Virus record (IMG/VR): IMGVR_UViG_3300027996_001800
Coordinates: 1 to 20,096 of that record
Source: a virus
Reading direction: 5' to 3' (one strand)
Length of the DNA: 20,096 nt
Shown: piece by piece, positions 1 to 20,081 of the stretch
How positions within the stretch are numbered: position 1 is the first letter of the stretch
Layout of the letters: the number at the start of each line of letters is the position of its first letter
Program-made: the position numbers and the translations under genes
The notes under the pieces: model-generated
The model's database searches: none
What the model saw: the letters and a program-made list of their open reading frames with translations, nothing else
Told to the model about the DNA's origin: nothing

Positions 1-2014
1 CTTGTTTTCATAGATATTCAAAATGTCATAAATCATTTTTTCAAGCTGTTTGAAACCATCAATTATCATTCATAACTTGTACTTGTTCTGCATTTAATGC
101 TTGCAACTCTCATTGTTCATTTTTACCATTATATATATCAACAGCTAATCATTTTTCATGTAAACTAGTTCATGGTTGAGCTACTAATCATTTACCTGCA
201 TCAGATAATGCTTGTTGTCTTTCAGAAGTTCTAAATGTATCAGCAACTATTATATCTCATCATACTTCTCTTCAGATAGTAGTTATAGCATCATTTAAAC
301 TTGTACCTACTGAAGTATCTAATGTTACATCTTTAGTTTTTCAATCTATATTAATAGTTTGTGTTGCTACTTGTCCTGTTGGAGTTACTGCTCAAGCTGT
401 AGGTCAAGTTATTGTTTTAAAATCAACTTCTCAAGTATTAGGATTAAATACTCATACTGTTCATGTAGATCATGGAGTTACAACTTGAAATGCTTTTTGA
501 TTAATCTTAGATTTTTCTTCAGCTATTTTTAATTCATATGTCATTTGTTTAGCAAATTGTGCATCTCAATCTATAATAGCTTGTTTTCTAGCTTCTTCAG
601 TTCTAGCTATTTGTTCATTTAATTGTCTATCCGCTCTAGCTATATCTTCTTGTCTAATAAGATCTCATCTCTGAACTCAATATAAATCAGTCATTAATCA
701 AGCTTTTTGATCTAATGTTTTCATATTAAATTCAAATTCAGCCTTATCTTGAGTATCCGCATATTGATAATCCGCATTCTCAATATTATATTGTCTTTGA
801 AGTGCAAATAATTCATCATCTACTGATTCTGTTTCATCTCTAGCTATTTTTAATTGTGCTGATAATGGTAATTGAGGGAATCTATCTTTAACACCTTTCA
901 GTATATTTCTTTTTTCTACATTCAATTCATCTATTTTAGATGCTGTATCATTAGCTTGTTTTCTTAAATCATTAGTAGCTTCTGTTCATTGTTTATATAC
1001 AGCATATTGATTTTCTATATCTGCAAAAATATTAACTCTAGCAGTTAAATAATCTTTATCTAATTGTTCTGTAGCATTTCTAAAATCTTGCTCTGTACTT
1101 ACAGTAGTAACTTTTTTATCTCAAAAAGCATTAATTAAATCTGTTCAATTTTTATTAATGTTATCTGTTTTCATCTTTAATTCAAACTTCCTTCTAGCTA
1201 CTAACATAGCTTCAGTAGGTTCTCATCAATTCATTTTAATTAATCTATTCCAAGTTTCCCCTCATTCTGCTATTTCTCAAGCATTTAATCCATCAAAATA
1301 TATTTCAGGTGTAGCGTTTTTATATTTATTATATTTTTGAAAAACTGCTGATGCTCTTATTGTATCTAAATTATTTCTATCTATCTTTACATTAGATCAA
1401 AACTGATTAAATAAATCAATAGCTTCATCTAAATTACCAGGTTGGAAAGTTAATTTACCTGTATCATCTAAATTAAAATTAATTCATTTAAGTTTAGCAT
1501 AATCTTCTTTTTCATTAGCTATTGTTCATAATGGTTTTCTTATAGGATTTCAAGCTCAATCTATAGTCCATTGAAATCTTTCACCATTTCTTTCTCAAGT
1601 AATTCTATTACCTATGATTTCAATATTTTCAGTTCCTCTATTCTCAAGTAAAGTAGACAGTTCTTTTTGTGTTCAACCTGCATCTTTAAAATCGGCTATG
1701 GTTGTGATCTGTGGCTTGTCCACTTTGTCTACTTTAGTGTCTACTTTAGTATCCACTTTTACCTCAGTTGGTTTCTGTATAGGTTCTTTTATTTCTGTAG
1801 GAGTAGGTCATGCTACTATTTCTTTAGGAGTTGGTTCTATTTTTGTAGGTTCAGTTATTTTTGATATCTCTTCTGTTTTAATAGGAGTAGATGGTTCTTC
1901 AGTGGCTTTCTGTTCAGTTACTCAACTAGCAAAACTTCAAGTGTCATTAAACTCTTGTCTTTGAATAGATTCCTGTTCAGTAGTTAATGTTTTCCCATCT
2001 TTTATTAGAGCCAT
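1..2014 (-). CDS. Long coiled-coil virion protein with C-terminal M15 (VanY-like) peptidase domain, partial
   Basis: Read with TGA as Gly, the frame is open from the ATG at 2014 to the window edge (671 codons; the end is missing). The N-terminal ~100 residues are a low-complexity Pro/Thr/Glu/Lys linker with KVDT repeats. Residues ~110-520 are mostly charged, Gln-rich and helical, as in internal virion or tape-measure-like proteins. From about residue 590 the sequence matches D-Ala-D-Ala carboxypeptidase/endopeptidase family M15: TFRTSERQ, then PGTSLHEKGLAVD with zinc ligands His619 and Asp626, then GHFEY with His664. The family cleaves peptidoglycan stem peptides. I infer a virion-associated lysin that opens the cell wall during DNA entry, rather than a free endolysin, because the domain is fused to a long structural part and is the last gene of the tail cluster. 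No signal peptide is visible. The M15 assignment is strong; the virion role is inferred. Confidence 0.85.
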
Positions 2015-4024: not shown

Positions 4025-4759
4025 TTAATTTAAAGTTACTGTTAATATTTCACTAGGAGATTCTCTATCTATAGGATAATCCATTAAAATAGGTGATAAG
4101 TTTCTATCCGCTAATTCCGTAGTAGCTTGTGTTCTTTGTCTAATATATTCTTGTTTTTCTGAAGCTGATTCTTGATTCTTACCTTGAGCTTTATATATAT
4201 ATGGTAAAATTCATTGAATAAGGATATCATGATGGTCTATAGGTATAACCATATCTGCTTCTACTGTAGTAGTTGCATAATCTGGAATCTTTTTTATTCC
4301 CTTAACCTGTATTCAATTAGCTATTGCTGCAGTAGGCATAGGTGCAACAAAATAACTATTATCAGCTATATAATAAATAGGATAATCAGAATCTTGATTA
4401 TTTTTATAATAATTCCACTCTCTTGCTAAGTTAGAAGGTTTAATCTCCATAGCTTTTATATATTTAAGAGTGCCATCATCATAAGTTTCTCAATCATAAT
4501 TAATTGAAATATTATTTATCTTTTTTATTCATGCAGTATCTGAAGCCACTACTGGTAATTGATATTCACTTTGATTTACCACCGTAGTGCTTACTGTGAA
4601 AATATCCCAATCATAATCTTCATTTATAGAAGTAACTATATAACTCCAAAAATTATTCTTAACTATATTTAAATATTTAAGAACTTGTGCGTCTGGAAAC
4701 TGTGTGTCATTTGTATGTGTTTGATCTCTAGCTAGATCTATAACTTCAGAAACATCCAT
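4025..4759 (-). CDS. Head-to-tail adaptor-like protein
   Basis: 244 aa from ATG 4759; only a few TGA-Gly codons, one (at 4526-4528) interrupting a shorter apparent ORF. The N-terminus is helical: VIDLARDQTHTNDTQFPDAQVLKYLNIVKNNFW, here given as positions 6-38 with key features FPD, LN and a terminal W. This is the layout typical of phage adaptor proteins that sit under the portal (P22 gp4/lambda gp6-like families). It continues with SEYQLP, then PIYYIADNSYFVAPMPTAA and a C-terminal helical part with DHHDILIQGILPYIY. Its place after the capsid gene and before the large tail protein fits the role. The family is recognised by pattern, not by search. Confidence 0.65.
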
Positions 4760-5059: not shown

Positions 5060-5626
5060 TTAGATGTGGGACCATCTTTTTCAATTCTTTATTTTTGAAA
5101 TATTACTAGCATCTACATTAAATCTTTTAGCTATTTCTTTTTGAGGAATTCATTGACTTAATAATTCTCTTATTTCTAAGACATCATTATCTTTTAATAT
5201 AGATAGTTTATGTTTTTCTCATTTTTTAAGACTTGTTGTATTTTTATACTTATCTCTTCATTTCATAATGCAATCATTAGTGTTGTCTTGAGCTGTTCAT
5301 ATAAAAAGATTTTTTGATCTATTATCATCTCTTATGTCGTTTTTATGACAGGCATATAATTTTGTATTATTAATATCTAATCAATGGAATGTTGAACAAA
5401 TTAATCTATGAACTCAACAAGATCTTTTTTGTCATTCTTTTAATAAATCAACATATAGATATCATGTTGGTCTTTTATTTAGAATAAGTATTTTTCATTG
5501 TTTAAAAGATTTTCCTCATTGCCAATGTTTAATAAATCTATCAACGCTTCTTATTTCTCCTGCTGTTGAAGCAATATAAAATCATTCATATCATGGTATT
5601 TCTTTCCAACTATCGTTTTTATTCAT
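5060..5626 (-). CDS. NUMOD4-HNH homing endonuclease with C-terminal helix-turn-helix
   Basis: 188 aa from ATG 5626. An N-terminal NUMOD4 motif (W7-KEIPGYEGFY, residues 7-17, then STAGEIRS) is followed by an HNH_3 nuclease core with His73 (VHRLI), His94 (CHKNDIRDDN) and Asn102/Asn106. The C-terminal part, residues ~141-185, is a resolvase-like helix-turn-helix (IPQKEIAKRFNVDASNISKI). Such proteins cut intron-free or endonuclease-free alleles and spread by repair. It lies alone between a terminator and the rest of the tail genes with its own promoter, so it looks like a free-standing homing gene inserted into the structural cluster. It is full length with conserved catalytic residues. No flanking intron or intein is evident, since the neighbouring genes are intact. 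Confidence 0.9.
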
Positions 5627-5747: not shown

Positions 5748-6914
5748 TTATGCTTCAGCAGCTTGTGAAGCGATTGGTAAAGAATACATTCTCTCCGCAC
5801 CTTCAGCAAAAGTTTTTAACCCATAGCGAGCCCATGTCATGTAGCGAGTTCATAATTGTTTTTGAACGTCTTGTACTTTAAGACTAACTTCTTTTTGCAT
5901 TACTAAGTTAATAGCACCTCTTTCCATTATTAAGTTATAGATAGTAACTACTCCCCAATCATCAGCAGCAGCTGTCATTGATGTAGATAGTTTTTTATAT
6001 CATCTTAAAGATGTAAGAGTCATGTCAGTAGTACCATCAACAGCAGTAATACCTTCCATTTTAGCTCTATCAGAAGTAGATAGTTCTATATAAGTAGAAG
6101 CACCAGGAGTACCAGTACCATTAATTGCAAGAATTAAGTTATCTAAAGTTGTAGCAGCAGTACCTGATAAGTCTACGTCTCAAGCAACAGCAGGAGCAGC
6201 AACGAATGTAAATACAACACCACCAATAGTAACAGTATCATTTGCAGTTGGTTCTGTACCAAAATCTAATGTAGCAGTAGTAGTTAAATTAGTTGAAACT
6301 ACTATACTCATGTTTTGGAATTCACCTCTATAACCTTTTTTGTATGAAACATCAGCAGTGTTAAATGTATTACCTAACGCTCCTTGTCCGATCATACTTA
6401 ATTGGTATGGGTCTATAACAGCAACTATATTTGAACCATCAACACCATCATTTAATAATGAAGCATAAGCATCACCATAAGTTGAAACTACATTAGATGT
6501 AGAAAGTGTAACAGTTGAATCAGCAGTAGTTCCAGCATTAGAATATTCATTAAAGAAGTTACCTTCGATATCTTGTTTGATTCTAAATGCAGCTTTTGGA
6601 GCAGCAGAAGCAACTACATCGTATCCATTATCAAGATTATCAACATCATCATAAACAAAAGTTACGATAGGTGTTTTATTGATAGTTAAAGTTTCATTAG
6701 AGAAATTTAGATCTTGATCTGTAACATCTGTATACTTAGTATAAGATTGTACATTTTGGAATTCTGGTCTTGGAAAGTTAATAGTATTCCCGTCTGGCAT
6801 ATCAGCCATAAGAGTTGTATTAGCTAGATCCATAGCAACTAGAGTTTCTTCTAGTAGAGCTTGAACCGTTTTTGTATATTTTTGCTTGTTTAAAGCAGAA
6901 ACTGAATTAGCCAT
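5748..6914 (-). CDS. Major capsid protein
   Basis: 388 aa from ATG 6914 to TAA 5748-5750. The sequence begins MANSVSALNKQKYTKTVQ and continues with GNTINFPRPEF and a QSYTKYTDVTDQDL stretch, the start pattern of P22/HK97-fold coat proteins. Around residues 210-275 there is an inserted-looking module, TVTIGGVVFTFVAAPAVA followed by a Gly/Thr-rich segment. It resembles small beta-domains inserted into some phage coat proteins. The C-terminal part (DDWGVVTIYNLIMERGAI) completes the fold. Its place after a scaffold-like gene and before a strong terminator fits a highly expressed coat protein. Only 3 of about 28 glycines use TGA (near residues 245, 291 and 346), very unlike the tail genes. The terminator and low-TGA, GCT/GGT-rich codon use suggest high expression. 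Confidence 0.85.
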
Positions 6915-6968: not shown

Positions 6969-7550
6969 TTATCTGATCTTACCTTTAACTCTTTGGTATT
7001 CCAAATATTTGTTATTAGGAAGTTTTAACGCTTCTTCATCAGTTAAATCAGCGAGTCTTTTTCTTACTTTAACATTAGATCATCTAGAACTAAAGTCATT
7101 GCTAGAAGTAGATTCTTTTGGAGTTTTAGCTTTTACTAAAGCAAGCGCATCTTCAAAAGACATGTTAGGATATTCTTCTAATATAGATTCCATTCAAGTT
7201 CTGTATTCCTTAGCTTCTGGGTTCTCAATAGTGAAAAACCTAAACTCAGTCTTATCAAAACCATTAACTTCATCATAATTATCATAATCTTCCTCGTCAT
7301 CATCAACATCTATATCATTAACTTCTAATGCTTTAAGTCTTTTCTGGAGTTCCGCATTTTCAGCCTTTAATCATTTATTGATTTTTGACATCTTTTTAAA
7401 ATTACTTTTCTTACTTTTGGTAGAGGTTGTATTATCCTCACTGTCTTGTTTAGCGTTAGCAGAGGTATCAGTACCCTCATTAGTTTCTATAGTAGTTTCA
7501 TCTTGACCGTCGCCAGATTCGTCTATTAATTCGAAATCTAATTCATCCAT
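6969..7550 (-). CDS. Scaffold-like acidic protein
   Basis: 193 aa from the ATG at 7550. A TTG at 7637 would add 29 residues, but it sits inside a 10-bp inverted repeat, so the ATG is preferred. The protein is very acidic at the N-terminus (MDELDFELIDESGDGQDET). It then has a Lys-rich, helical segment (KAENAELQKRLKALEV) followed by an Asp/Glu run (DIDVDDDEEDYDNYDE), and ends in a short basic stretch. Acidic/coiled-coil/basic-tail layout and position directly upstream of the capsid gene match phage scaffolding proteins, which guide capsid assembly through a basic C-terminus. There is no sequence signature that proves this. Confidence 0.65.
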
Positions 7551-7604
7551 AGTGTGAATGTTATAATGTAAACCATTTAAGGCTAGAGCATTAAACTCTA
7601 AATG

Positions 7605-7638
7605 TTTGCCATATCGAGAATTTCTGGGATATGGCAAA
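7605..7638. repeat. 10-bp perfect inverted repeat between two structural genes
   Basis: TTTGCCATAT (7605-7614) and ATATGGCAAA (7629-7638) are exact reverse complements around a 14-nt loop. The structure lies between the stop of the coiled-coil gene (7648) and the scaffold ATG (7550). There is no T-run after it on either strand, so it is not a classical terminator. It could be an mRNA-processing or attenuation hairpin, or shield the scaffold leader. Confidence 0.65.
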
Positions 7639-8114: not shown

Positions 8115-10016
8115 TTATTGGTTAGATAATAAACTTGAACTCTCGTTTGCCACTTGACTCATTCACTGAGCCGCAACATTATTTGTTACACTCTCACTTA
8201 CTTGTGTTAATTGCTCAGTGTCTCAACCTTGTACTTTATATAACTCAAGTAATGATTGCCTATAAACCATTGTATTAAGATCTTGTGGTGCAGCTTTTAT
8301 AGCTATTAAGTGTGTTAATGGATCATAATCCTCTTTTACTTCTACAGTTTCACCGTATGATAATAATTCTACATTCTGTATAGCTATTATCTCTTGAGGT
8401 GTAAGTGGAACTTCTATATCAACTTGTGTTTCAGGTATTCAACTAGATATTAAATATCTTCTATATGAATAATTCTGTGCTGCTTTTGGTCTCTCTAGTG
8501 TTTGTAATAATGGTAGGGTGTTAGCGTATGCTAATCTTTCTTTATCTCTTCTCTTGTCTAATTCTGCTACTGTTATAACCTGTATCCTTACAGACTTTTC
8601 ACTTAAGAAATCTTTTTTCCTTAATTCTCTAGGTATTATACTAAATCATGTATCAAAATTAACTACTTTTGTATCTCATTCAGTAAATCTCTCCATATAC
8701 CCCCTTAACCATAATCTTATTAGTTGTTTTTCTCCCCAACTTTCAACTTTTGCAGCTAATGCTAAGTTTATATCTGTATTATCTTGTACTAAGTTATTAG
8801 TAGTAGCTGTTTCTCTCCTATCTGTAGTAGATCATTGAACTACTCTACCTATAGATGTGCTTGACTCAACCTGTCTATCTAATGAATCATCTATTACAAA
8901 TGAATTATCCGCTCTAACATCTCTTTGTATAGGAGCTGCTGCATTTCATAATCCTTCTCATTCTAGTGGGTTTACAGCTATTAGTTTATTAAAACCAAAG
9001 TTTAAATCCTCTTTATTCTTAATTAGTCTAGTATTATACATATACATAGGATACAATTCAGCCATTGATTTATCTAGCCTCAAATTAGCTATCAATGCTT
9101 TTGCCCTCTGTACATCTGATACAAATGTAGCTACTCTATCACCAAACGGATTGTTTGTTCTAGGTTTCCAATATGTAAATGCAAATGGAAATGGTATCAA
9201 TGTAGCGTCTTTCTTCTCTTGTTTAGTTACAGCAACTAACAGTTCACCATCTATGATAGTTCTCTGTTCGTTACCCATTATGAACATTGCTTTTACCGTC
9301 CCTTTTGGTCATACAAATATACCAAAATGTGTATATATTTTATAATTAGGATTATTTGAATTCTCTTGCTTATATGAAGTGTTTAAATCACTATTAACTT
9401 GATCATCTTGTCTAGATCTATCTGAACCTCTTTGATTTCATGTATTTGGATTTAATTCTTCTATGATTTTATCAGAATATCCCTCAGATTCTAAATCAGT
9501 CTTAAACATTTGTTTCTCAAAACCTGTATATGAATAATTACCATTCACGTAGTCCCCGTCAGGGTCCGGTATCCAATTTCTAGGATCTATAGTCTCGAAT
9601 TTTGGCGACTTTGTTACACCACACCATCATACCTTTGGAACTATACCTACTCAATAGAAAAATTTATCCCAATCTCTTTGATATTTAAGGATCTCTATAT
9701 CCTGCTCATTAAAATCCTCTTCTAATGTAGCATTCAAGTTCTTAACTATATAATCCCTTCATATCTTTGTGGATATAAATTTTGATTGTGGTCTGTCCAC
9801 ATAACTTCTAGCCATTAATGCCGAATGTACATTGAATAATGTTGAATCTCCTATCTTATCCTTATTCTTTTTTTGATTATTAAAAAGCTTCAGGTCTCTT
9901 TCAAAGATCTCTCTCTTATTAGTAACAAACCTATATCATCTCTCATATTCTGACGAAATTTGTGACACAATATCATCCTTTCTTAATCAAGTAGCTTTTA
10001 ATATATCTTTTAACAT
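8115..10016 (-). CDS. Portal protein
   Basis: 633 aa from ATG 10016 to TAA 8115-8117; about 15 of 35 glycines are TGA. It forms the dodecameric ring at the capsid vertex through which DNA is packaged. Supporting features are ETIDPRNWIPDPDGDY near residues 155-170, the F-T-Y-W-K-P-R segment with a following long helical stretch (VATFVSDVQRAKALIANLRLD) that suits the stem and wing helices, SIGRVVQGSTTDRRETATTNNL, and a helical, Gln-rich C-terminus. Size, and location directly after the large terminase, match portal proteins of short-tailed phages (P22-type portals are long, about 700 aa). The name rests mainly on context and overall pattern. Confidence 0.8.
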
Positions 10017-10076: not shown

Positions 10077-11639
10077 TTAATAGTAGACATCTATATCTAA
10101 AATATCCTCCTTTTTCTCCTCGTCATCTGTTAAAAATTTAAGCAACTGATCCTGATTAATCTCTTCCTCCGATTTCTGATTAATTATATCCTCCTCAGAT
10201 ACAGTCCCATCATGGTGATCTTTGATAAGCCAGTACATACGGAAAGAAATAGCATCCATATAATCTGGAGATCTACCTAGTTTCTCTTTAGTATCCTTCT
10301 TACTCTCCAATTTTATCTTATTATCATTATCCATATCTATCTGTCTAATAAAAAGTGCCTCCTCTATTATCTTCTCCTTATACTGACAATCCGGATATAT
10401 ACTCACTTGTGGTAAATACTTCTGTAAATAAAAGAATGATTGAGTCTTTAAATTTTGATAATTCCTCTTCTTATATGTAAGCAGTTTTGCCGCATACGGT
10501 TGAATAGGTGCTTGGTTAGCTATAAATCATTTACAACCTAATAAATCAACCAGTCCTCATCATACTCATACCTCATCCACTATAACATTATTTATCCCTA
10601 CATTATACTCTCCTATAAATGTTTCAATCAATCTAGCCTGTTCAGTAAGACTTGATTTCCTTATCTCTATAATTTTCTTTATATGTAAACCTTGCCATAT
10701 ACATATAACCGTACTATCCCTACCCTGTCTAGCTGCATCACAAGTTATGTAGTTTTTGTCTAAGTCCACTTTATCATTTTTGCGAAAAGTCGCACTTATA
10801 TCATCTATAGAAAAAAGCAGAGCCTCGTCATCTGAGTACTCAAAATTACCATACAATAATCTCTCCCTACTAACTTTATCCAAATTCTTCAAATTCTCTA
10901 TATATGCCTTAGGTAAAAATGGATTATCCGTAGGAAGTGATTGAATAAATCTCCTATGTGATAATAGAGTCTTGTTCTTCCACGGTTTGTAAAAATCCGT
11001 ATATACAAAATTCCTACCTGGATTTAATGTAAGCAATAACTTAGGCTTACTCTGTATCCACATAACAACTTGATACTCATTAAGTGGCTCGTTATAATGA
11101 AGAATACCTTTTCCATTCTGGATTATCCACTGCTCCGACTCCTTCTTATCCTTTGAATAAAAATATGTCTTTCCTGTTAAATTTCTCAGACGAGATGTTA
11201 CTATCTGCTTAGCCTTACCACTAACCTCCTGCGCCTCATCTATAAAGAAACCCGTGTACTCCGTAGAACCCAATCTATCAAAGTTTGGATCACTCGGATT
11301 CTCATTCAAATCCATCAATACCACCATACACCCATTAGTGAATGTCATTATTGATTTCTGATCATCGTACTTATAACTACCATCCTCAAAACCTACCTCC
11401 TTCAAAGTATTTTTAAATGTAATAAATGTAGATAACTTTATCTTCTTCAATTCAGATCTACCTATCCCCCACGTACTACCAGGCTTCTCAGCTATCTGGG
11501 TAGCCAACCATAAAGAACCAAGTAAGGATTTCCCTCAACCAGCTCATCATCAATACGCAATCTCCGTAGTCTCACCATCATGAAGGTAATCCCACGCCTC
11601 TTTCTGCCTCTTAAATAATCTAGTAGGTGTGTTTGTCAT
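10077..11639 (-). CDS. terL: Terminase large subunit (packaging ATPase and nuclease)
   Basis: 520 aa from ATG 11639. The N-terminal ATPase has Walker A GGAGGGKS (residues 30-37), where three glycines are TGA, and Walker B FFIDEAQE with Asp134 and Glu135. A TLNPGR segment around residues 204-209 fits the coupling region. The C-terminal RNase H-like nuclease shows CDAARQGRDS (Asp301, Asp308), IVDEVGVGGGLVDLLG (Asp355, Gly by TGA) and GRSPDYMDA (Asp462). The enzyme translocates DNA into the prohead and cuts it at the end of packaging. Under the standard code the gene would appear as three fragments. About 7 of 33 glycines are TGA, all near the P-loop or in the VDEVGVGGG-GFIA region. It lies 9 bp after the putative small terminase gene. 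Confidence 0.97.
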
Positions 11640-11648
11640 TAGTGTATT

Positions 11649-11963
11649 TTAATTATTGATAATTTGTATATTGATCTGAGATGGTATCAATTGAGGTCAC
11701 TCGTCTCCTATTCACTGAATCTTCTGATTGTGTTTAAATGCCACATCCTTAGCTTGTATAACCTCACCCAACCTAAGCGAACCATCCTTATTCTCCATCC
11801 TCTCTAATACCAAATTATCCGCAGCCTTAATAATCCTCTCATTCTGTCTAATTGTGTAATCCTCACTTTGAAAATCATCTATAGAAAGAGAATCCTGGGG
11901 GTACTGAGTGTCTCAAAGTTTCTGCGTGTCTTGAATAGATATCATAAATTCTTCCTCTGTCAT
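11649..11963 (-). CDS. Putative terminase small subunit
   Basis: 104 aa from ATG 11963, ending 9 bp before the terL start. It is charged and mostly helical, with three TGA-Gly codons. The segment SLRLGEVIQAKDVAFKHNQK recalls the helix that oligomerises terS rings, and the C-terminal peptide IPSQINIQIINN is like the exposed beta tail that contacts the large subunit. No N-terminal helix-turn-helix is obvious, and the protein is shorter than most terS. The call rests on position and weak sequence character. Confidence 0.55.
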
Positions 11964-11991
11964 AATCTCTTGTTATAAAATATTATATAGT

Positions 11992-12558
11992 CTACGCCTT
12001 TTCCCATAAAAATCAATATGCAAAATCTCTCTTATTAGCTACATTATTTAAATATCATTTAGAAACACCTAATGTTTTAGCTGCTAAACTAACACTGCCC
12101 CACTCTTTAACGAACTCTCAGTTCATATCTTTTTGTATAAGAGTATGACTTTTAGGATGGGATTTTCAAGTTTTTCAAAAAAAATGATGAGCACTACCTT
12201 TAATAGGTTTCCTAAGTCAGGTAGCTATTGCGTGTTTCATATTTTTTTGCCTAGTAGTGTATTCTAAATTTTCTAACCTATTATCTGTTTTTATTCAATT
12301 AAGATGATTAACCTCTAATCCTTCCGGACATGGTCAAATATGAGATAACATCACCATTCTATGGACAGTAAAACTATACCTCTTTTTAAATAATACAAAT
12401 TGAAAATATTCATATCAACCATTATTAATATTAGTAGGGACTATATATGTAGAACTGAATTTATGAGATTTAATTTTTCATAAATTACTAATTGTGTACA
12501 TAGGCATCTTTGTTCATGGGATAAGAAAGTCTGGATAAGATTTAAATACTTCTTTCAT
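11992..12558 (-). CDS. HNH homing endonuclease with NUMOD3/NUMOD1-like DNA-binding parts
   Basis: 188 aa from ATG 12558 to TAG 11992-11994. The HNH_3 core is clear: VHRMVML (His66), PEGLEVNHLNG (His85) and TDNRLENLEYTT (Asn93, Asn97). After it come a NUMOD3-like segment (GSAHHFFGKTGKSHPKS) and a NUMOD1-like C-terminus (GEFVKEWGSVSLAAKTLGVSKGYL ... FLWEK, residues ~147-186). The N-terminus lacks a clean NUMOD4 motif but has MYTISNLGKIKS, a diverged form. It is the first gene of the leftward operon, 28 bp ahead of the putative terS. It is a free-standing selfish gene; homing endonucleases are often found next to terminase genes. Confidence 0.88.
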
Positions 12559-12594
12559 ATTAAAAGATTAAAAATAAATGTATGATACATAAGT

Positions 12595-12623
12595 ATTATA
12601 TGTGAAAAAATTAAAAATACAAA
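12595..12623 (-). promoter_or_regulatory. Candidate promoter of the leftward (late) operon
   Basis: On the minus strand a perfect TATAAT -10 (12595-12600) lies 17 bp after a weak -35 TTTGTA (12618-12623), about 37 bp upstream of the first leftward ATG. It would drive the HNH endonuclease, terminase and head genes. The -35 is poor, so a phage or host activator may be needed. Confidence 0.45.
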
Positions 12624-13040
12624 TTTAATTACTATGTATCTTTATCTGAAACTGGGAAAAATTTGGAGGTGGTACAGTAATAATAATAACACAACACCAT
12701 CTTGTGTACCCCCGGCGGGGTCCCTAATTTAAAAACCTCCCCCTTTAATTAATAGAATTTAAAGCTACCTATTTTTAATTAATATAATACCGTGGCTTAC
12801 TTAAGGGAGAACATTTGTATTGTATGTGTTTTGGTGCACATTTCATTCCTTATGTGAACCATATACGCAAACTTATAGAGTATTATGTTGAGTCCTTAAC
12901 TTATACTGTATCCTATTCATTATCCAAAGCTCTTACGGGCTAAGTTTATGTGGGAATAACCTATGGTTTTCGTAGTCTCTCCCCGCCGTTTTTGTATTAT
13001 ATAGATCTTTTATAGAAAGTGAACGGGTTAAAATAGCATT

Positions 13041-13101
13041 TGTACACTAAAAAACATACAAAATGGCTTAAAATAAGGATTTTATTATTAATTAGTGTAC
13101 A
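13041..13101. repeat. 10-bp inverted repeat TGTACACTAA / TTAGTGTACA
   Basis: The arms at 13041-13050 and 13092-13101 are exact reverse complements separated by 41 AT-rich bases. The arrangement suits a dimeric protein bound at two sites with looping, or a cruciform stem. It lies just left of the iteron cluster. Confidence 0.5.
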
Positions 13102-13174
13102 TACTATATATATTGAGATTTATTTTACGAAGGTAAGCCATTTCTCATTTTTACGTGGTAAGATGTAAAAAAAG

Positions 13175-13346
13175 TGTTCACCGTGTTCACCCGACCAAGT
13201 GTAACCAGCATAAGTAAGCCATAAACAGCGGTGAACATATTTTTTACCAAAATGTTCACCCGGCGGGGTTATACAACATTTTCACCAATTGTCAGTGAAC
13301 ACGCACTTCCGAAATTTGTTCACCCACCCCCCAAATTCTGTTCACC
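13175..13346. repeat. TGTTCACC iteron cluster
   Basis: Six exact copies of TGTTCACC occur within 172 bp: forward at 13175-13182, 13184-13191, 13253-13260, 13317-13324 and 13339-13346, and reverse at 13230-13237. Two degenerate copies lie at 13279-13286 and (reverse) 13294-13301. The first two are 9 bp apart. Such short iterated sites next to AT-rich DNA are typical of replication-initiator binding at phage and plasmid origins, or of repressor operators. The primase-helicase starts 0.8 kb to the right. Confidence 0.75.
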
Positions 13347-13375
13347 CACTTTTATTTCCGTAAAAAAAAGCCTCC

Positions 13376-13389
13376 TTGTCAAGTGACAA
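13376..13389. repeat. Short inverted repeat TTGTCA-AG-TGACAA
   Basis: TTGTCA (13376-13381) and TGACAA (13384-13389) are exact complements around two bases. The 2-nt gap is too small for a good RNA hairpin, so a DNA operator is more likely. It lies 7 bp before the 22-bp palindrome. Confidence 0.4.
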
Positions 13390-13395
13390 TTAACA

Positions 13396-13417
13396 ATTCT
13401 TATGTATACATAAGAAA
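13396..13417. repeat. 22-bp perfect palindrome, operator-like
   Basis: The half-site ATTCTTATGTA (13396-13406) is followed at once by its exact reverse complement (13407-13417). A perfect 22-bp dyad without a spacer suits a dimeric regulator. It stands between the iterons and the rightward promoter region. Confidence 0.7.
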
Positions 13418-13569
13418 TAAAAAGTATAAGTTACCTATTTTAAGCCATTTATTAAATAAAAAATATACAACAAAAAAACCTGTTTCACACAGAATATATA
13501 TTTATAATTATTTTTTTACCCCCCAGTTCAGCCCCTGCGTCTTCCGTAGATAAATACTTTTTAAGTTTT

Positions 13570-13741
13570 GGCGCCTTTCGGTCAACTATTACTTTATAAG
13601 ATATATGTTATATATTATAATAAAAAAAAGCCTTATTACAAGACTTTTATTATTAAAACCACACATTTAATCATTTACGACAAGAATGATCATTCATAGA
13701 AGGCATATAAACCCGAGCATAAAATGAACCATAAAGGCGCC
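13570..13741. repeat. 9-bp inverted repeat containing GGCGCC palindromes
   Basis: GGCGCCTTT (13570-13578) and AAAGGCGCC (13733-13741) are exact reverse complements 154 bp apart. Both include the GC-rich palindrome GGCGCC in otherwise AT-rich DNA, and they bracket the stem-loop at 13626-13648 and the palindrome at 13684-13695. Confidence 0.45.
13626..13648 (-). terminator. Possible intrinsic terminator in the control region
   Basis: Read leftward, AAAAGTCTT (13640-13648) pairs with AAGGCTTTT (13626-13634) around a 5-nt loop, with one G-U pair, and the T-run continues to 13622. It would stop leftward transcripts coming from the early region side. The stem is AT-rich, so strength is uncertain. 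Confidence 0.4.
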
Positions 13742-13788
13742 GATAATTATAGATAAACAGAATATAGTAATTAAGAAATCATTCATAG
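13684..13788. repeat. 12-bp palindrome and 11-bp direct repeat
   Basis: GAATGATCATTC (13684-13695) is a perfect palindrome. Its right half belongs to the 11-mer ATCATTCATAG (13689-13699), which recurs at 13778-13788. Both lie upstream of the rightward promoter and may be regulator sites. Confidence 0.45.
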
Positions 13789-13867
13789 GAGAGTTATTAT
13801 TAAATAAGCTACAAGATTATTATACTACACAATTACTTTAAAGTCAAATAAAAAACTACAAAATCTT

Positions 13868-13895
13868 TTGACTTCCGAGTCTTTCTGATTACAAT
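13868..13895 (+). promoter_or_regulatory. Strong sigma70-like promoter of the rightward (early) operon
   Basis: TTGACT (13868-13873), a 16-bp spacer and TACAAT (13890-13895) lie 31 bp before the first rightward ATG at 13927. Hexamers and spacing are identical to the minus-strand promoter at 5656-5683. Confidence 0.65.
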
Positions 13896-13926
13896 AGGGA
13901 ACACTTTACAAATAATATAAAACCCC

Positions 13927-14115
13927 ATGAAAAAGAGAAATTTTTTATTAAAGGAGCACGTACTCTTTATAAATAAGCAGTTTAAAGCCATCGATGAACA
14001 AATTAGAACATTACAAGATAGTAAGAAATGAATATATAAAGCTTTCGACACCACAAAGCAGACATATTACGCTAAATTAAGTGAACTTGTGAGTAATGGA
14101 GAGATAGAAAAATAG
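13927..14115 (+). CDS. Small basic helical protein of unknown function
   Basis: 62 aa, ATG 13927 to TAG 14113-14115, with one TGA read as Gly at about residue 35. An in-frame TAA six bases upstream fixes this ATG as the first start. It is Lys-rich and helical (KEHVLFINKQFKAIDEQIR, then TYYAKLSELVSNGEIEK). It is the first gene after the rightward promoter and precedes the primase-helicase by 42 bp. The position suits a small early regulator or replication accessory, but no family is recognised. Confidence 0.6.
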
Positions 14116-14157
14116 TTCAGGCCACACAATTTTATTTTATATAAAAGTATACAAGAT

Positions 14158-16500
14158 ATGTCTACGATATTTGAGGAGATCAATAATTTACCGATATTAG
14201 AGGTATTAACTAAGGCTGGGATATCTACTAAGAAGATAAGTTGACAGCCACATATGCATAATGTGCTTAAGTCGGACGGTAAGGTTGACACATCTTTTGT
14301 GGTACATGAGACTAAGAATTTAGCTAAGGATTTTTGAGGTAATGGGGATGCTGGAGGACCATTTGATATAATAGGCAGATATGTATTGGATCAGGATACC
14401 CAGACTAATGAGGGTAGGGAGACTACGGCGAACTGGTTTATTTCTAAATGATTAGTTAAGCAGTCAGATACTAAGAAGGAGTATGTCCCTACGCATACTG
14501 GAAAATACTTACTTGAGAACTACGATGGTTTTAAACTAAATGGTTATAAGGATGAGATTTCTGGTTTTTTAATAGGAAGATGAGTGCCGTATGATTGGAT
14601 TCAGAAGAATCATTTAAAGGTTGGTGAGGTATTTGCGGATATATGATATTATGATAATTATTTAACTACTGAGCGTGAGGTTTGGAGGGATGAGGATGGG
14701 AAATATCAGAATCATGAATGAGACGGGGCTAAGAATGTGTGAGTATTTATGTTTCCATGTTACGATGAACATTGAGATCTCATATGATTAAAATTAAGGA
14801 GGAGGGATGGTAAGTTAATTAGAGGGAAGAAGAGTTTTGCTATAGGTAATACTGGTCTTTTATATAATGATATAGATATTAGATCAGCTATTATAGTTGA
14901 GTGAGAGATGGATTACCTAATTTTGAAGCTCCTTTGATTTTCTAGTATAGTAGGTAATTTATGAGGGGTGCAATCAAACAGGACAAGACTGAAGGAGTTA
15001 TTATATGATACGGATAAGATTATATGTTTATATGATACTGATGTAGCGGGGACACAAGCTAAGAAGGCATTAGCTGATATGTTTGGTAGAGTGGTCCATG
15101 AGGTTGTGTTTCCAATAAGAGAGGATAAGAAGGGTGTTGTACTTAGTGATGTGAATGATTTTTATAATGCTTGATATAATACTAAACCTAAATGGGATAA
15201 GATATTGTTAGAGATTAAACAGATAGGTGAGGAACAGGCTAAGAAGGGTAAGTATCCATTTGTTATATTGAGGGAACATATCAAATACTACTATGATATT
15301 GAGTACAAGAAGTTTCAGGAGAAGGGAGCGGTTGCGGATTACCTGTGAGTTAAATCTACGGATTTGGTAAGTATGCGTAAACAGTGATCTATCCAAACTT
15401 ATGAGAATCTTTGTTATTTAGAAGGTTGAAGACCGTGACATTATAATACGTTGGATGAGAATTCGTATTTGAAATATGGTTGAGATGCTGAACCTAGGGT
15501 GCATTCACATATATCATACTTGATAAATAATATATGTGGTGGTAAGAAGAAGAATATAGAATGGGTTCATAAGGCTATACTGTTTAAGTTAACGCATATA
15601 AATAATGTTCATGTACCTGCATTAGTTTTGTATGGTTCATGATGATCATGAAAGGGTACATTTCTTAATTTATTATCTAGGATTTTCTGAAAAGATAATA
15701 CGTTAGTTTGATTAGGTCAGAGGGATTTGGAGAGTAGTTATGATACATATGTATGAGATAAACTTATAGTTGAATTTAAGGAGGTATCAAGCGGGAATAA
15801 GCATAATGATAAAAAAACTTTGGACAGGATAAAATGATTTATAGGAGAACCTTATATAACTATTAATCCTAAATTTCAGCCCGCTAGAGAGGTGAATAAT
15901 ATAGCGTGGTTTCATTTAAGTTCAAATCATGCTGTACCGTTACAGATGGATAGTAAACATAGTGGTAATAGACGTTTTACTGTTATTAAGACGGGGAATG
16001 CTCTTGATTATAAGATTGCTGAGGAGATGAATCATGAGACATTTAAGGACAGGTTAGTTATAAGAGAGTATGTAAATTGGTTATATAAGATGTATCCAGA
16101 GATTCCAGATTCTACAACGTTATCTGCTTTAGATAATGAAGAGAAGAGGAATTTGGAGGAGGCTTGTGAAGGTGGGAGTAATCAATTCTTTGAGTGGTTT
16201 GAAGGAAAGTATCCACAAATAACTAAGATTACTAATCCTGAGAAGAATATGTTACTTCAGGTATATTGTGAAGAGATGTGAGAGGATATCAAGGATTTGA
16301 AATTTAAGCAAAATAATTTTGATTTATGACTAAGCCATAGGTATGAGAAGAAGAGGGTTAAACTTAGATGACAAACTATCAGATGATATTTTATAAGGAA
16401 GACTAAGTTTGAATTAGAAGTTATCCCTGAATCTCTGGATAATTTCTTTAAAGCAGGTGAGATTGAGAAGTTATGTAATAGGAATAATTTTTTTAGTTAA
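14158..16500 (+). CDS. Primase-helicase: Toprim domain fused to SF3 (D5/DUF5906-like) helicase
   Basis: 780 aa from ATG 14158 to TAA 16498-16500, with 29 TGA-Gly codons. The N-terminal ~240 residues include KDFGGNGDAGGPFDIIG, a position where DnaG-type primases have their CHC2 zinc domain, but no zinc cysteines are seen. A Toprim domain follows: VEGEMD (247-252, Gly249 by TGA), NLGGVQ, and YDTDVAG with Asp293 and Asp295. The C-terminal helicase has Walker A GSGGSGKGT (493-501, three glycines by TGA), an FKEVSS Walker-B-like strand, the sensor FHLSSNH (Asn590) and GNRRF with Arg605/606. It should make primers and unwind DNA at the phage fork. Position next to the iteron region supports origin use. 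Confidence 0.93.
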
Positions 16501-16511
16501 TAAAACTAGCT

Positions 16512-16658
16512 ATGAATGAGAGTAAGTATATAGATTATGAAACATATAAAAAGAATTCTCGTATAGAAGAATTACCATGAGATGAGGTAATGGATGGTAT
16601 TCTTCTAGGTTGGGAAAAGGAGTGGGTTTATAGTCCAAATAAATTAGATTTAGTTTAA
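16512..16658 (+). CDS. Small acidic protein, unknown
   Basis: 48 aa, 11 bp after the primase-helicase stop. It contains one TGA-Gly (ELPGDEV) and ends GWEKEWVYSPNKLDLV. No family is recognised. It keeps an open frame between two certain genes with the usual spacing and A/T-rich start context, so it is probably translated. Confidence 0.5.
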
Positions 16659-16671
16659 TAAATAATATAAA

Positions 16672-16980
16672 ATGAAACAATTAGATATATTAGTAGATAA
16701 ATTAGAATTACAGGTGGATCACATGTTTGATACATTATTTAAAATACAGGAACTTGAAGCGAAGCAATGACCAGCAAGACATTTAGGTAATAAGTATAAG
16801 ACAATGATTTGAATGACGATGCAATCTATACTTATGAGGAATTTATGGGATGATTTTGAGAAGAATTGTTTAGATAGAGATAAGAGAGAAATACTTGTAG
16901 CTGAAATATGAAATGCTACATATTTGCATTATAAGGAATTATACAATTTTGATTCTAAAGAAATAGCTAACAATTCTTAA
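16672..16980 (+). CDS. Small helical protein, unknown
   Basis: 102 aa from ATG 16672 to TAA 16978-16980. Three in-frame TGA codons (KQGPA, MIGMT, EIGNA) are read as Gly. The N-terminal part (LDILVDKLELQVDHMFDTLFKIQELEAKQ) is a predicted coiled coil; the rest is Met-rich and helical (KTMIGMTMQSILMRNLWDDFEK). No known motif is seen. It lies between the primase-helicase and SF2 helicase genes, suggesting a role linked to replication. Confidence 0.65.
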
Positions 16981-16995
16981 TAAAGAATATAAATT

Positions 16996-17184
16996 ATGAA
17001 TAAAATAAAATTATATATCATAAAGAAATTATTATGATTTAATAATCACATGAGATTATGACAGATAATTTCTGTATGATTATCAAAAAGACACAAAAAT
17101 GATTCTTTTTATATTTCTGACAAAGAATTACTTACTAATTTAGAAAAGATTAAAAATGAACAAAGCACAACTAACTGAATATAA
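16996..17184 (+). CDS. Small basic protein overlapping the helicase start
   Basis: 62 aa from ATG 16996 to TAA 17182-17184. It overlaps the first 29 bp of the SF2 helicase gene in another frame. Four TGA codons are read as Gly (KLLGFNNH, RLGQIISVGL, TTNGI). The N-terminal half is basic and hydrophobic (MNKIKLYIIKKLLGF); one short membrane or amphipathic segment is possible. Overlap suggests translational coupling. No family is recognised, and as a short ORF in AT-rich DNA it is less certain. Confidence 0.45.
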
Positions 17185-18520
17185 GAAATTTTTTACTTTA
17201 GAGAAACAGGAGTTTAATTTCTTTAGTCAAAAGATGATTAATAAGAAGTATAGATATTATACGAGGGATAAATTACCTCCGATGTATAAAGAAATACTTA
17301 ATTTAGAGAGACTACCTTTTACTACTAACTGAAGCAGTATAAGTTTTAAGCAAAATAAGGTTTCTAATGAAATAAAAGAGAGGTTTGCAGAAAATATTAA
17401 ACTGCAGGAAGAGATAATGAGAGTAGTTAAGAAAAGAAATGAACAGTTCAATTATAAGTGTGGGATAATTAAGGCTAAAACGGGGATTTGAAAATCGCAT
17501 ATATGTATGGATATAATAGAATATTTACAAACCCCTACCCTCATCCTTGTATCTAATTTAAAGCTTATGCAGGAGATGATAGATAAGATAGAGAGTATGA
17601 CAAATTATAAAGCAATGGTGAGCCAGTATGGTGGGAAGTATAAAGATATAGGTTATCTTACAGTAATGACTAAGAAGAGTTTTGATTTATGTAAGGATGA
17701 GGATGAATTATCAGATTTTGATTGTGTTATAGTTGATGAGAATCATCAAGGGTTTACTAAGAAATTTAGGGATAAGTTTAATACAGTTTTCCATAATAAG
17801 GATATATATTTATACGGTTTAAGTGCTACTCCCTACACAGCTGAATTAAACACATCAGACTTGGAGAAATATTATGGTAAGATAATAGAAGTGAAGAAAG
17901 ATTATGATTTTATCCCATCATTCATCTTCTTTAATTATTTTCATATAGAAGACTATGAGTTTGAAGCTTACCATGAATTAAAACAATGATTAATAGATGA
18001 TCCAGATAGAACTAAACATCAAGAAGAGAGAGTTGTTAATAATTTGTCAAAAAAATGTTCATTAATACTTTGTGATAGATTAGAGGATATAGATAATTGG
18101 TTTTGCTTCTTAAGTGAATTAAAATGACACACTGTTATTAAGATCACTTGAGAAACTAAAATAGAAGATGATAAAAAACAATTAAAGGATGCTCTTAAGT
18201 TATCTCTACCCATAATTATTATCTGATCAATACAAAAGACAAGTACGGGCTTCGATTACCCAATTATTGACACTATCTTCTTATTTAGTTCAATTAAGTT
18301 TGAATCCACTGTGATTCAGTCAGTTTGAAGATGACTTCGTAAGTCTCCTTGAAAAACTTCATGTAAAGTATTGGTTCGGAATGACAAAATCTTAGATAAA
18401 CAACGCGTACAAAAAATGAAAGCAATACAAGATGAGTATTGAGTTAGTAACAAAACAGTAGAACAGGTGTATATAAATAAGCAGAGGAAAAAGAAATGAC
18501 AAGTCGCTTTGACTTTCTAA
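17156..18520 (+). CDS. SF2 DNA helicase (DEAD/DEAH-like)
   Basis: 454 aa from ATG 17156 to TAA 18518-18520. Motif I is KAKTGIGKS (residues 106-114, Gly112 by TGA). Motif II is VDENH (Asp194-His197), a DENH variant of DEAH. Motif III is LSATP (223-226). Motif V is STGFDYP, and motif VI is QSVGRGLR (388-395), with both glycines written TGA and Arg392/Arg395 as arginine fingers. The residues before the P-loop are a ~100-aa lead with a possible Q-motif-like region. Phage SF2 helicases of this size (T4 UvsW-like or restriction-type) remodel replication or recombination intermediates. It follows the primase-helicase in the same operon. It is shown as full length; under the standard code it would appear fragmented. 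Confidence 0.92.
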
Positions 18521-18565: not shown

Positions 18566-19102
18566 ATGGAAACATGGAAAGATATACCGTGATATGAATG
18601 AAAATATCTAGTAAGTAATAAAGGGGAAGTAAAAAGTTTGTTACGCAATATTATATTAAAACCTATTAAAGATAAAGGTTGATATTTAAATGTTAATTTA
18701 TGGTATAATTGAAAGCACTCATTTAAGAAGATACATAGATTAGTTTTACTTACTTTCATAGGAGAATCTAAGTTACATTGTAATCACCAAAATTGAATTA
18801 GAGATGATAATGATTTAGAAAATTTACAGTACTGCACTATTGCTGAAAATAATTTACACAGGTTTAGAGTTCTAGGATATAAAAATAACTTTCAGACAGA
18901 TCATTATTGTAAAGGAAAATTCTGAAAACATAATCACTCTAGTAAAACAGTTCGACAATCTACTACTGATGGAGAGATAATTAAAATATGGGATAGTATG
19001 TCAGATGTACAAAGAGAATTATGAATAAATATAGCAAGTATATCTCGAGTATGCAAGTGAAAGAATAAAACAGCATGAGGCTATAAATGGGAATACACTT
19101 AG
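18566..19102 (+). CDS. NUMOD4-HNH homing endonuclease with NUMOD1-like C-terminus
   Basis: 178 aa from ATG 18566 to TAG 19100-19102. It begins METWKDIPGYEGKYLVSNKG (NUMOD4) and has an HNH_3 core with IHRLVLLTF (His57), CNHQNGIRDDN (His74, Asn82) and LENLQYCT (Asn86). A NUMOD3-like FGKHNHSSK and a NUMOD1-like part (DGEIIKIWDSMSDVQRELGI ... GYKWEY) follow. It is closely related in layout to the endonuclease at 5060-5626, also at DNA level over the first motif. It sits in a 45-bp gap after the SF2 helicase and before the tiny-ORF run, free-standing and intact. Confidence 0.9.
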
Positions 19103-19796: not shown

Positions 19797-20081
19797 ATGA
19801 AAAAAGAGTGTGAATTATGTGGTGTTTTTATTCAAAAGGATATGAATTTATGTAATGGATGTATAGTAGAAAAGGAAAAGGATATTATTAATACACCCAG
19901 TCATTATACAAAATGAGGGATAGAACCTATAGATTTTTCTATTAGTAATAATCTAAGCTTTTGTGAAGGTAATGTTATTAAATATGTTACAAGGTATAAA
20001 CATAAAAATGGTTTAGAAGATCTAAAAAAAGCAGAATTTTATATTAAAAGATTAATACAAGATTATGAAAATAAAATATAA
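19797..20081 (+). CDS. DUF3310 protein with N-terminal zinc ribbon
   Basis: 94 aa from ATG 19797 to TAA 20079-20081. The first ~25 residues have Cys5/Cys8 and Cys19/Cys22, a small zinc ribbon. From residue 32 the DUF3310 pattern is clear: NTPSHYTKGGIEPIDF, GNVIKYVTRYKHKNG, EDLKKAEFYIKRLIQDY. DUF3310 proteins are common in phages, often labelled nucleotide kinase without strong proof. The Gly in YTKGGIEP is TGA. It is the last gene in the window. Confidence 0.88.

What the first reader, a model, noticed from the sequence alone, without database searches (positions are those of the whole stretch)
10077..18520. Phage genome translated with TGA as glycine (code 25)
Seen: TGA occurs at conserved Gly positions in four unrelated motifs: terminase Walker A (30-37), Toprim VEGEMD, SF3 Walker A and SF2 motifs I and VI. 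TGG encodes Trp, and TAA/TAG end genes. Known: this reassignment is a hallmark of Absconditabacteria and Gracilibacteria. Inference: the host belongs to one of these barely cultivated groups, whose phages are little described.
Basis: partly seen in the sequence, partly recalled or inferred. Interest (0 to 1): 0.85.

Follow-up and report, generated by a model that had tools for sequence, protein, structure and literature searches.

The report
Phage with two reassigned codons
This is about half of a tailed-phage genome whose genes read the usual stop codon TGA as glycine, as its probable Gracilibacteria-type hosts do, and its family also reads CGG (normally arginine) as tryptophan, a second change that I did not find reported for such phages.

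Summary
The window is a 20,096-base IMG/VR virus contig. With TGA as a stop, long open frames cover 14% of it; with TGA as sense, 80%. There are 215 in-frame TGAs, and the complete genes end in TAA (18) or TAG (3). TGA means glycine: in columns aligned to standard-code phages it faces Gly 98 of 172 times and Trp twice. In related contigs it swaps with GGN 119 times and with TGG 6 times. Pfam scores are best with TGA=Gly.
Phages of Absconditabacteria and Gracilibacteria that use code 25 are already published, so the finding as written is a new member of a known kind.
New here: table 25 is incomplete for this family. CGG sits at conserved tryptophan columns, including one in the window's helicase, while CGT, CGC and AGG behave as arginine. 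Hosts with CGG=Trp have been predicted; I found no report of such phages. Profile tests of CGG were mixed.
Host: replication and HNH genes are shared with TGA-rich contigs in genomes of the Gracilibacteria class. No CRISPR spacer matched. Codon use fits lineages with CGG=Trp but CGA=Arg better than Absconditabacteria with CGA=Trp.
The capsid gene avoids TGA (12 of 106 glycines, against 726 of 1203 elsewhere).

The parts
2..2014 (-). Large tail/virion protein with C-terminal VanY-like peptidase domain, runs off the window; 39 in-frame TGA
   Evidence: Pfam PF02557 25.4 bits; homologues in relatives; codons
2557..4023 (-). Probable tail nozzle (P22 gp10-like beta-propeller); 39 TGA of 49 Gly codons
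   Evidence: Low-confidence model (pLDDT 52.6) whose five best PDB matches are all P22/Sf6/Pa223 podophage tail entries, TM only 0.31-0.36; follows the adaptor gene
4025..4759 (-). SU10-type head-tail adaptor
   Evidence: PF24175 44 bits, cut-off 27
5060..5626 (-). NUMOD4-HNH homing endonuclease
   Evidence: Pfam/PHROG
5748..6914 (-). Major capsid protein; only 3 TGA of 28 Gly codons
   Evidence: phrog_267 58 bits; codon counts
6969..7637 (-). Probable scaffold protein (TTG start)
   Evidence: position; homologues in relatives
8115..10016 (-). SU10-type portal protein
   Evidence: PF23899 45.4 bits, cut-off 30; 81-87% identical relatives
10077..11639 (-). Terminase large subunit; TGA at 30, 31, 32, 35 of Walker A
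   Evidence: Pfam/PHROG; 39% identical to Flavobacterium phage 11b; codons
11992..12558 (-). NUMOD4-HNH homing endonuclease
12560..13926 (.). Intergenic region between the divergent virion and replication arms, with repeated TGTTCACC motifs; possible regulatory or origin region (inference)
   Evidence: sequence and repeats; GC skew flips here
14158..16500 (+). Toprim - SF3 helicase primase; 29 TGA
   Evidence: DUF5906 65 bits, Toprim; PDB primase 6k9c
17156..18520 (+). SF2 (XPB/RadD-like) helicase; 11 TGA
   Evidence: ResIII, DEAD, Helicase_C; PDB RAD25/RadD
18377..18379 (+). CGG codon (SF2 residue 408) at a column that is Trp in all six relatives
   Evidence: alignment
18566..19102 (+). NUMOD4-HNH homing endonuclease
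19797..20081 (+). DUF3310 protein
   Evidence: PF11753 70.7 bits

Best explanation
The window is about half of a roughly 39-kb tailed phage, probably podovirus-like. It is written in the code of code-25 bacteria of the Gracilibacteria class. UGA is read as glycine throughout, in early (replication) and late (virion) genes alike. CGG is read as tryptophan. Both readings are shown by comparison of sequences, not by protein data. Inferred: the phage relies on host tRNAs (a UGA-reading tRNA-Gly and a CGG-reading tRNA-Trp), since it and its near-complete relatives carry neither, and on a host in which UGA no longer ends translation. It would then be locked to hosts that use both reassignments, most likely Gracilibacteria lineages with CGG=Trp and CGA=Arg.
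For: TGA=Gly: codon counts and open frames. Columns of standard-code phage homologues: Gly 98/172, Trp 2, while TGG columns give Trp 36/62. Opposite TGA in relatives: GGN 119, TGG 6. Pfam: primase DUF5906 65.2 bits with Gly against 50.9 Trp, 47.7 Cys, 58.7 Arg, 59.2 Ser; the terminase is not recognised at all with Trp.

CGG=Trp: 10 sites in six contigs, site-weighted Trp 6.6, Arg 0, Lys 0.1. Controls: CGT Arg 14.8/30, CGC Arg 5.3/10, AGG Arg 51 + Lys 35.6 of 149, Trp at most 0.2. Five of eight distinct columns are Trp-majority and none Arg/Lys-majority. TerL residue 61 of a relative is CGG where the aligned standard-code terminases have Trp.

Host: primase relatives in 8 of 353 genomes of the class, all with 8-54 in-frame TGAs; two have the full primase with the same SF2 helicase nearby. 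HNH and other shared genes. tRNA scan: none in the window or in relative G003, one tRNA-Gln in relative G010.
Against: No CRISPR spacer link in 353 genomes. The virion genes have distant standard-code relatives: TerL 39% in Flavobacterium phage 11b, portals about 26% in TGA-poor contigs. CGG is rare: one clear site in the window itself. Re-scoring with CGG=Trp against PHROGs was mixed (up for the window's SF2 and one terminase profile, down by 1-3 bits for most primase profiles). Half of this phage's genome is unseen and could hold a tRNA.
Confidence: 0.87

Rival explanations
1. TGA is read as tryptophan (code 4, Mycoplasma-like host or code-4 phage).
For: TGA-sense frames alone cannot tell Gly from Trp; code 4 is the commoner TGA-sense bacterial code.
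Against: Trp faces TGA in 2 of 172 standard-code columns and 6 of 295 non-TGA codons in relatives; TGG columns give Trp; Pfam scores drop under TGA=W and the terminase vanishes.
Confidence: 0.01
2. A standard-code host is infected and the phage switches the code itself with a suppressor tRNA, keeping TGA in late genes as a timer, as in recoded gut phages.
For: Known for TAG- and TGA-recoded phages (described in PMC10746230); structural genes are rich in TGA.
Against: TGA is equally frequent in the primase, helicase and HNH genes, which would be early genes, and rarest in the major capsid gene. No UGA-reading tRNA in the window or in two 39-kb relatives. Gene sharing is with code-25 genomes. 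TAG and TAA remain stops.
Confidence: 0.05
3. The host is an Absconditabacterium (CGA and CGG both Trp) rather than a Gracilibacteria lineage with CGG=Trp only.
For: Terminase relatives with dense TGA in genomes G032-G034 and G040, where CGA faces Trp; three genomes of this type (G015, G033, G034) carry a tRNA with anticodon CCG, and the two sequences read (G015, G033) have G73 and an A1:U72 pair, Trp-like features. Most published code-25 phages are from Absconditabacteria (PMC10746230).
Against: In genomes with CGA=Trp, alignable CGA:CGG sites are 55:6; in this phage family 5:8 (p=0.0002), and none of the phage CGA sites faces Trp. The primase and HNH links are to genomes G092, G095, G101, G117 and G118; of these G117 reads CGA as Arg, and G092 and G101 read CGG as Trp with no alignable CGA.
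Confidence: 0.25
4. The CGG codons are Arg after all: chance Trp-to-Arg substitutions or sequencing errors (TGG and CGG differ by one transition).
For: Few sites; profile scores mixed; one CGG in host contig L089 is not at a Trp column.
Against: Five of eight distinct columns are Trp-majority, from five different contigs, while the control Arg codons CGT, CGC and AGG give Trp a total weight of only 0.2 in 189 sites (about 5e-8 for an assumed rate of 3/189); three contigs share CGG at one primase column; no CGG site is Arg-majority.
Confidence: 0.1

Closest known systems
Code-25 phages and prophages of Absconditabacteria and Gracilibacteria (Liu et al. 2023, PMC10746230)
   Same: TGA read as Gly throughout, frames collapse under code 11, IMG/VR contigs, patescibacterial hosts inferred
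   Different: Those hosts were inferred by spacers, here only by gene sharing and codon use; that study compared codes 25 and 11 only; whether this exact contig is in its tables was not checked (supplements not readable)
RSA-ATP1, Absconditicoccaceae tailed phage (mBio 2026, PMC13059738)
   Same: About 39 kb, tailed, code 25, no close relatives among classified phages
   Different: Carries four tRNAs including tRNA-Gly(TCA), and DnaB/DnaD, NinB and NinG genes; this family has a Toprim-SF3 primase and SF2 helicase and no such tRNA was found
AGG=Met phages inferred by Codetta (eLife 2021, PMC8629427)
   Same: Phage genomes following a sense-codon reassignment of their host without carrying the tRNA
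   Different: Other codon, other host; here a sense-codon change is added to a stop-codon change
SU10-type podophages (portal PF23899, adaptor PF24175)
   Same: Portal and adaptor families, P22 gp10-like nozzle candidate after the adaptor
   Different: No detectable portal or capsid relative in 50,697 phage records; different replication genes and code

Membership tests
NCBI genetic code 25 | TGA = Gly | tested here: met
NCBI genetic code 25 | TAA and TAG are stops | tested here: met
   18 TAA and 3 TAG gene ends, no in-frame TAA/TAG
NCBI genetic code 25 | All other codons standard (CGG = Arg) | tested here: not met
   CGG faces Trp, never Arg, at the informative sites of the family
Code-25 phages of Absconditabacteria/Gracilibacteria | Code-25-only reading of phage hallmark genes | tested here: met
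   TerL, portal, capsid and primase broken under code 11, intact under 25
Code-25 phages of Absconditabacteria/Gracilibacteria | Spacer in a code-25 host genome | tested here: not met
   No spacer-like match in 353 genomes for the window or for 20 kb of a relative; absence is weak evidence because such genomes often lack CRISPR and are incomplete
Code-25 phages of Absconditabacteria/Gracilibacteria | Genes shared with code-25 genomes | tested here: met
Suppressor-tRNA recoded phages | Phage-encoded suppressor tRNA | tested here: inconclusive
   None in the window or in two 39-kb relatives; half of this genome is missing
SU10-type podophages | SU10 portal and adaptor families above Pfam cut-off | tested here: met
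SU10-type podophages | Short tail seen in virions | not testable with these tools
   needs microscopy

The most novel reading that the evidence does not exclude
This phage family uses a doubly altered code, UGA=Gly plus CGG=Trp, taken from its host and without its own tRNAs: a sense-codon reassignment to tryptophan in viruses, which ties them to the subset of Gracilibacteria that made both changes.
Probability: 0.8. Interest if true: 0.62.

Novelty: new variant of a known kind. Interest (0 to 1): 0.52.

Why it matters
Code-25 phages are known, so the stop-to-glycine part is expected. A second change, CGG=Trp, means that table 25 mistranslates genes of this family at conserved tryptophans. It also gives a finer host marker than TGA alone: whether CGG and CGA are Trp or Arg separates lineages of the class. 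It bears on whether alternative codes act as barriers to phages, since this family appears to have followed its host through two reassignments. The near absence of TGA from the capsid gene in four relatives suggests that UGA-Gly is a slow or costly codon, which could be tested.

Tried and rejected
Code 4 and other TGA meanings (C, R, S): lower scores. CRISPR spacer search in 353 genomes with the window and with 20 kb of relative G010: only AT-rich chance matches, genuine homologous genes and one tRNA region. A genome-contig scan with the portal found nothing. The portal, capsid and nozzle candidate have no match in the phage collection. Rfam: only a sub-threshold chance hit. tRNA scan of the window: none. 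A CCG-anticodon tRNA in G092, G101 or G118 was not found by pattern, so the CGG-reading tRNA of the favoured host group is not identified. Decoding CGA in the phages was inconclusive: few sites, none facing Trp. Re-scoring profiles with CGG=Trp was mixed. The portal and capsid have no solved relative by sequence.
Full report
WHAT THE WINDOW IS. The window is a complete IMG/VR virus record of 20,096 bases with no end repeats, 29.9% G+C. Two arms diverge from an intergenic region near 13 kb. The minus strand carries the virion genes: terminase, portal, probable scaffold, capsid, adaptor, probable nozzle and a large protein with a peptidase domain. The plus strand carries the replication genes: Toprim-SF3 primase, SF2 helicase, DUF3310. 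Three NUMOD4-HNH homing endonuclease genes lie among them. Portal and adaptor belong to the SU10 families. The gene after the adaptor gave a poor model (mean pLDDT 52.6), but its five best PDB matches are all tail entries of P22, Sf6 or Pa223, so a short tail is likely but not shown. Two relatives of 39,004 and 39,295 bases with the same gene order, apparently permuted relative to each other, suggest that the window is about half of a 39-kb genome.

IS TGA SENSE? Yes. Long frames cover 14% with TGA as stop and 80% without. There are 215 in-frame TGAs and no in-frame TAA or TAG; complete genes end in TAA (18) or TAG (3). First-order Markov random sequences never gave a TAA/TAG-free run above 240 codons, against genes of up to 781 codons here. 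The closest relatives (at least 39% identical over the primase, or 63% over the portal) show the same rise.

IS IT GLYCINE? Three tests agree. First, with TGA masked, alignment to standard-code phage proteins (terminases of five Bacteroidota phages, HNH genes of Staphylococcus and Streptococcus phages and Dulem virus 33, helicases, primases) puts Gly opposite TGA 98 of 172 times and Trp twice; TGG faces Trp 36 of 62 times. Second, in relatives from five contigs, TGA faces TGA 210 times and otherwise Gly 119 of 295 times; TGG, one mutation away, only 6 times. Third, Pfam scores are highest for Gly among Gly, Trp, Cys, Arg and Ser, and the terminase is not recognised at all with Trp.

A SECOND REASSIGNMENT. 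Codetta (PMC8629427) predicts CGA and CGG to be Trp in Absconditabacteria, and CGG to be Trp in some Gracilibacteria. I therefore decoded these codons here. In the phage family CGG faces Trp: 10 sites, site-weighted Trp 6.6, Arg 0, Lys 0.1. The control codons CGT, CGC and AGG face Arg and Lys, and Trp with a total weight of only 0.2 in 189 sites. Collapsed to eight distinct columns, five are Trp-majority: primase 584 and 637, TerL 61, portal 289, and SF2 residue 408 of the window (408 counted from the gene's ATG; 412 in the stop-to-stop frame). None is Arg-majority. If the true rate were 3 in 189, five of eight would occur with probability about 5e-8. The window's own case is the CGG at 18377-18379, where six relatives have Trp. 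Caveats: few sites, one clear site in the window itself, and mixed profile scores. CGA could not be decoded; none of its sites faces Trp.

HOST. One genome-contig scan with the portal found nothing. A pattern search for EF-Tu with TGA at a glycine brought named Gracilibacteria and Patescibacteria contigs, and through one of these the 353 genomes of that class could be searched. Primase relatives occur in eight, all with in-frame TGAs. In G095 and G117 the full primase lies beside a relative of the SF2 helicase on contigs that also carry dTMP synthase, dUTPase and endolysin-like genes, recognised by eye only. HNH and other small genes are shared with G118, G092 and G117 contigs. No match looked like a CRISPR spacer. 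Using isoleucyl-tRNA synthetase and phage-like loci, the genomes fall into groups: CGA=Trp (G014, G015, G017, G033, G034, G040); code 25 with CGA=Arg (G103, G117, also G081, G084 and G110); CGG=Trp (G092, G101, few sites); and standard-code members (G077, G091). Two of the CGA=Trp genomes whose sequence I read carry a CCG tRNA with G73 and A1:U72, Trp-like. The phage family's CGA:CGG ratio (5:8) differs from that of CGA=Trp genomes (55:6, p=0.0002). A host with CGG=Trp and CGA=Arg is therefore favoured, not proven.

HOW IT WORKS. Shown: TGA is read as Gly in early and late genes alike and CGG as Trp, and no tRNA was found in the window. Inferred: the host supplies the UGA-reading tRNA-Gly and the CGG-reading tRNA and lacks termination at UGA, so the genome is simply written in the host's code and would fail in a standard-code cell. 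A late-gene timer is unlikely, because TGA makes up 51-59% of glycine codons in primase and helicase, 42-44% in terminase and portal, and only 11% in the capsid gene (pooled over relatives). That capsid avoidance (12 of 106 against 726 of 1203, Fisher p=8e-24) is the same in four relatives. It fits selection against UGA in the most heavily translated gene. EF-Tu of two host contigs shows the same (3/37 and 4/37), but other EF-Tu genes less so.

WHAT IS KNOWN. Code-25 phages and prophages of Absconditabacteria and Gracilibacteria were reported in 2023 (PMC10746230), and a complete one, RSA-ATP1, in 2026 (PMC13059738, with its own tRNA-Gly(TCA)). Phages following a host sense-codon change have one precedent that I found, AGG=Met (PMC8629427). 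In the literature library I found no report of CGG=Trp in phages. The finding as given is a new member of a known kind; with CGG=Trp it is a new variant.

Noticed in passing
window 18377-18379 (+) and relatives L018, L021-L026, L029: CGG codons sit at conserved Trp columns in this phage family, so table 25 mistranslates them as Arg.
   Followed up: yes
window 5748-6914 (-) and its homologues in L022, L023-L024 and L025: The major capsid gene avoids TGA for glycine (12 of 106) although other genes use it for 726 of 1203 glycines; conserved in four relatives.
   Followed up: partly
L038 57-1247, L039 3740-4930: EF-Tu of two Patescibacteria-type contigs uses TGA for only 3 and 4 of 37 glycines; on L039 the genes before it use it for most, while the genes after it use it little.
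   Followed up: partly
window 12560-13926: A 1.4-kb region without convincing genes between the divergent arms holds repeated TGTTCACC motifs and paired inverted copies; possible origin or control region.
   Followed up: partly
L053 3-1352: A 450-codon frame on a code-25 genome contig has 41 glycine codons and no TGA at all, while its neighbour uses TGA for 19 of 25.
   Followed up: no
L023 8635-8708: The 39-kb relative carries a tRNA-Gln(TTG) gene beside its primase; similar DNA occurs in several genomes of the class.
   Followed up: partly
L014, L015, L017 terminase genes: Some relatives have a longer, much diverged terminase (38-41% identical) next to an 82-84% identical portal, suggesting replacement of the terminase gene within the family.
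   Followed up: no
L096 12129-13976, L097 2923-4806: Distant portal relatives (about 26%) in TGA-poor contigs of two genomes of the class that appear to use the standard code.
   Followed up: partly
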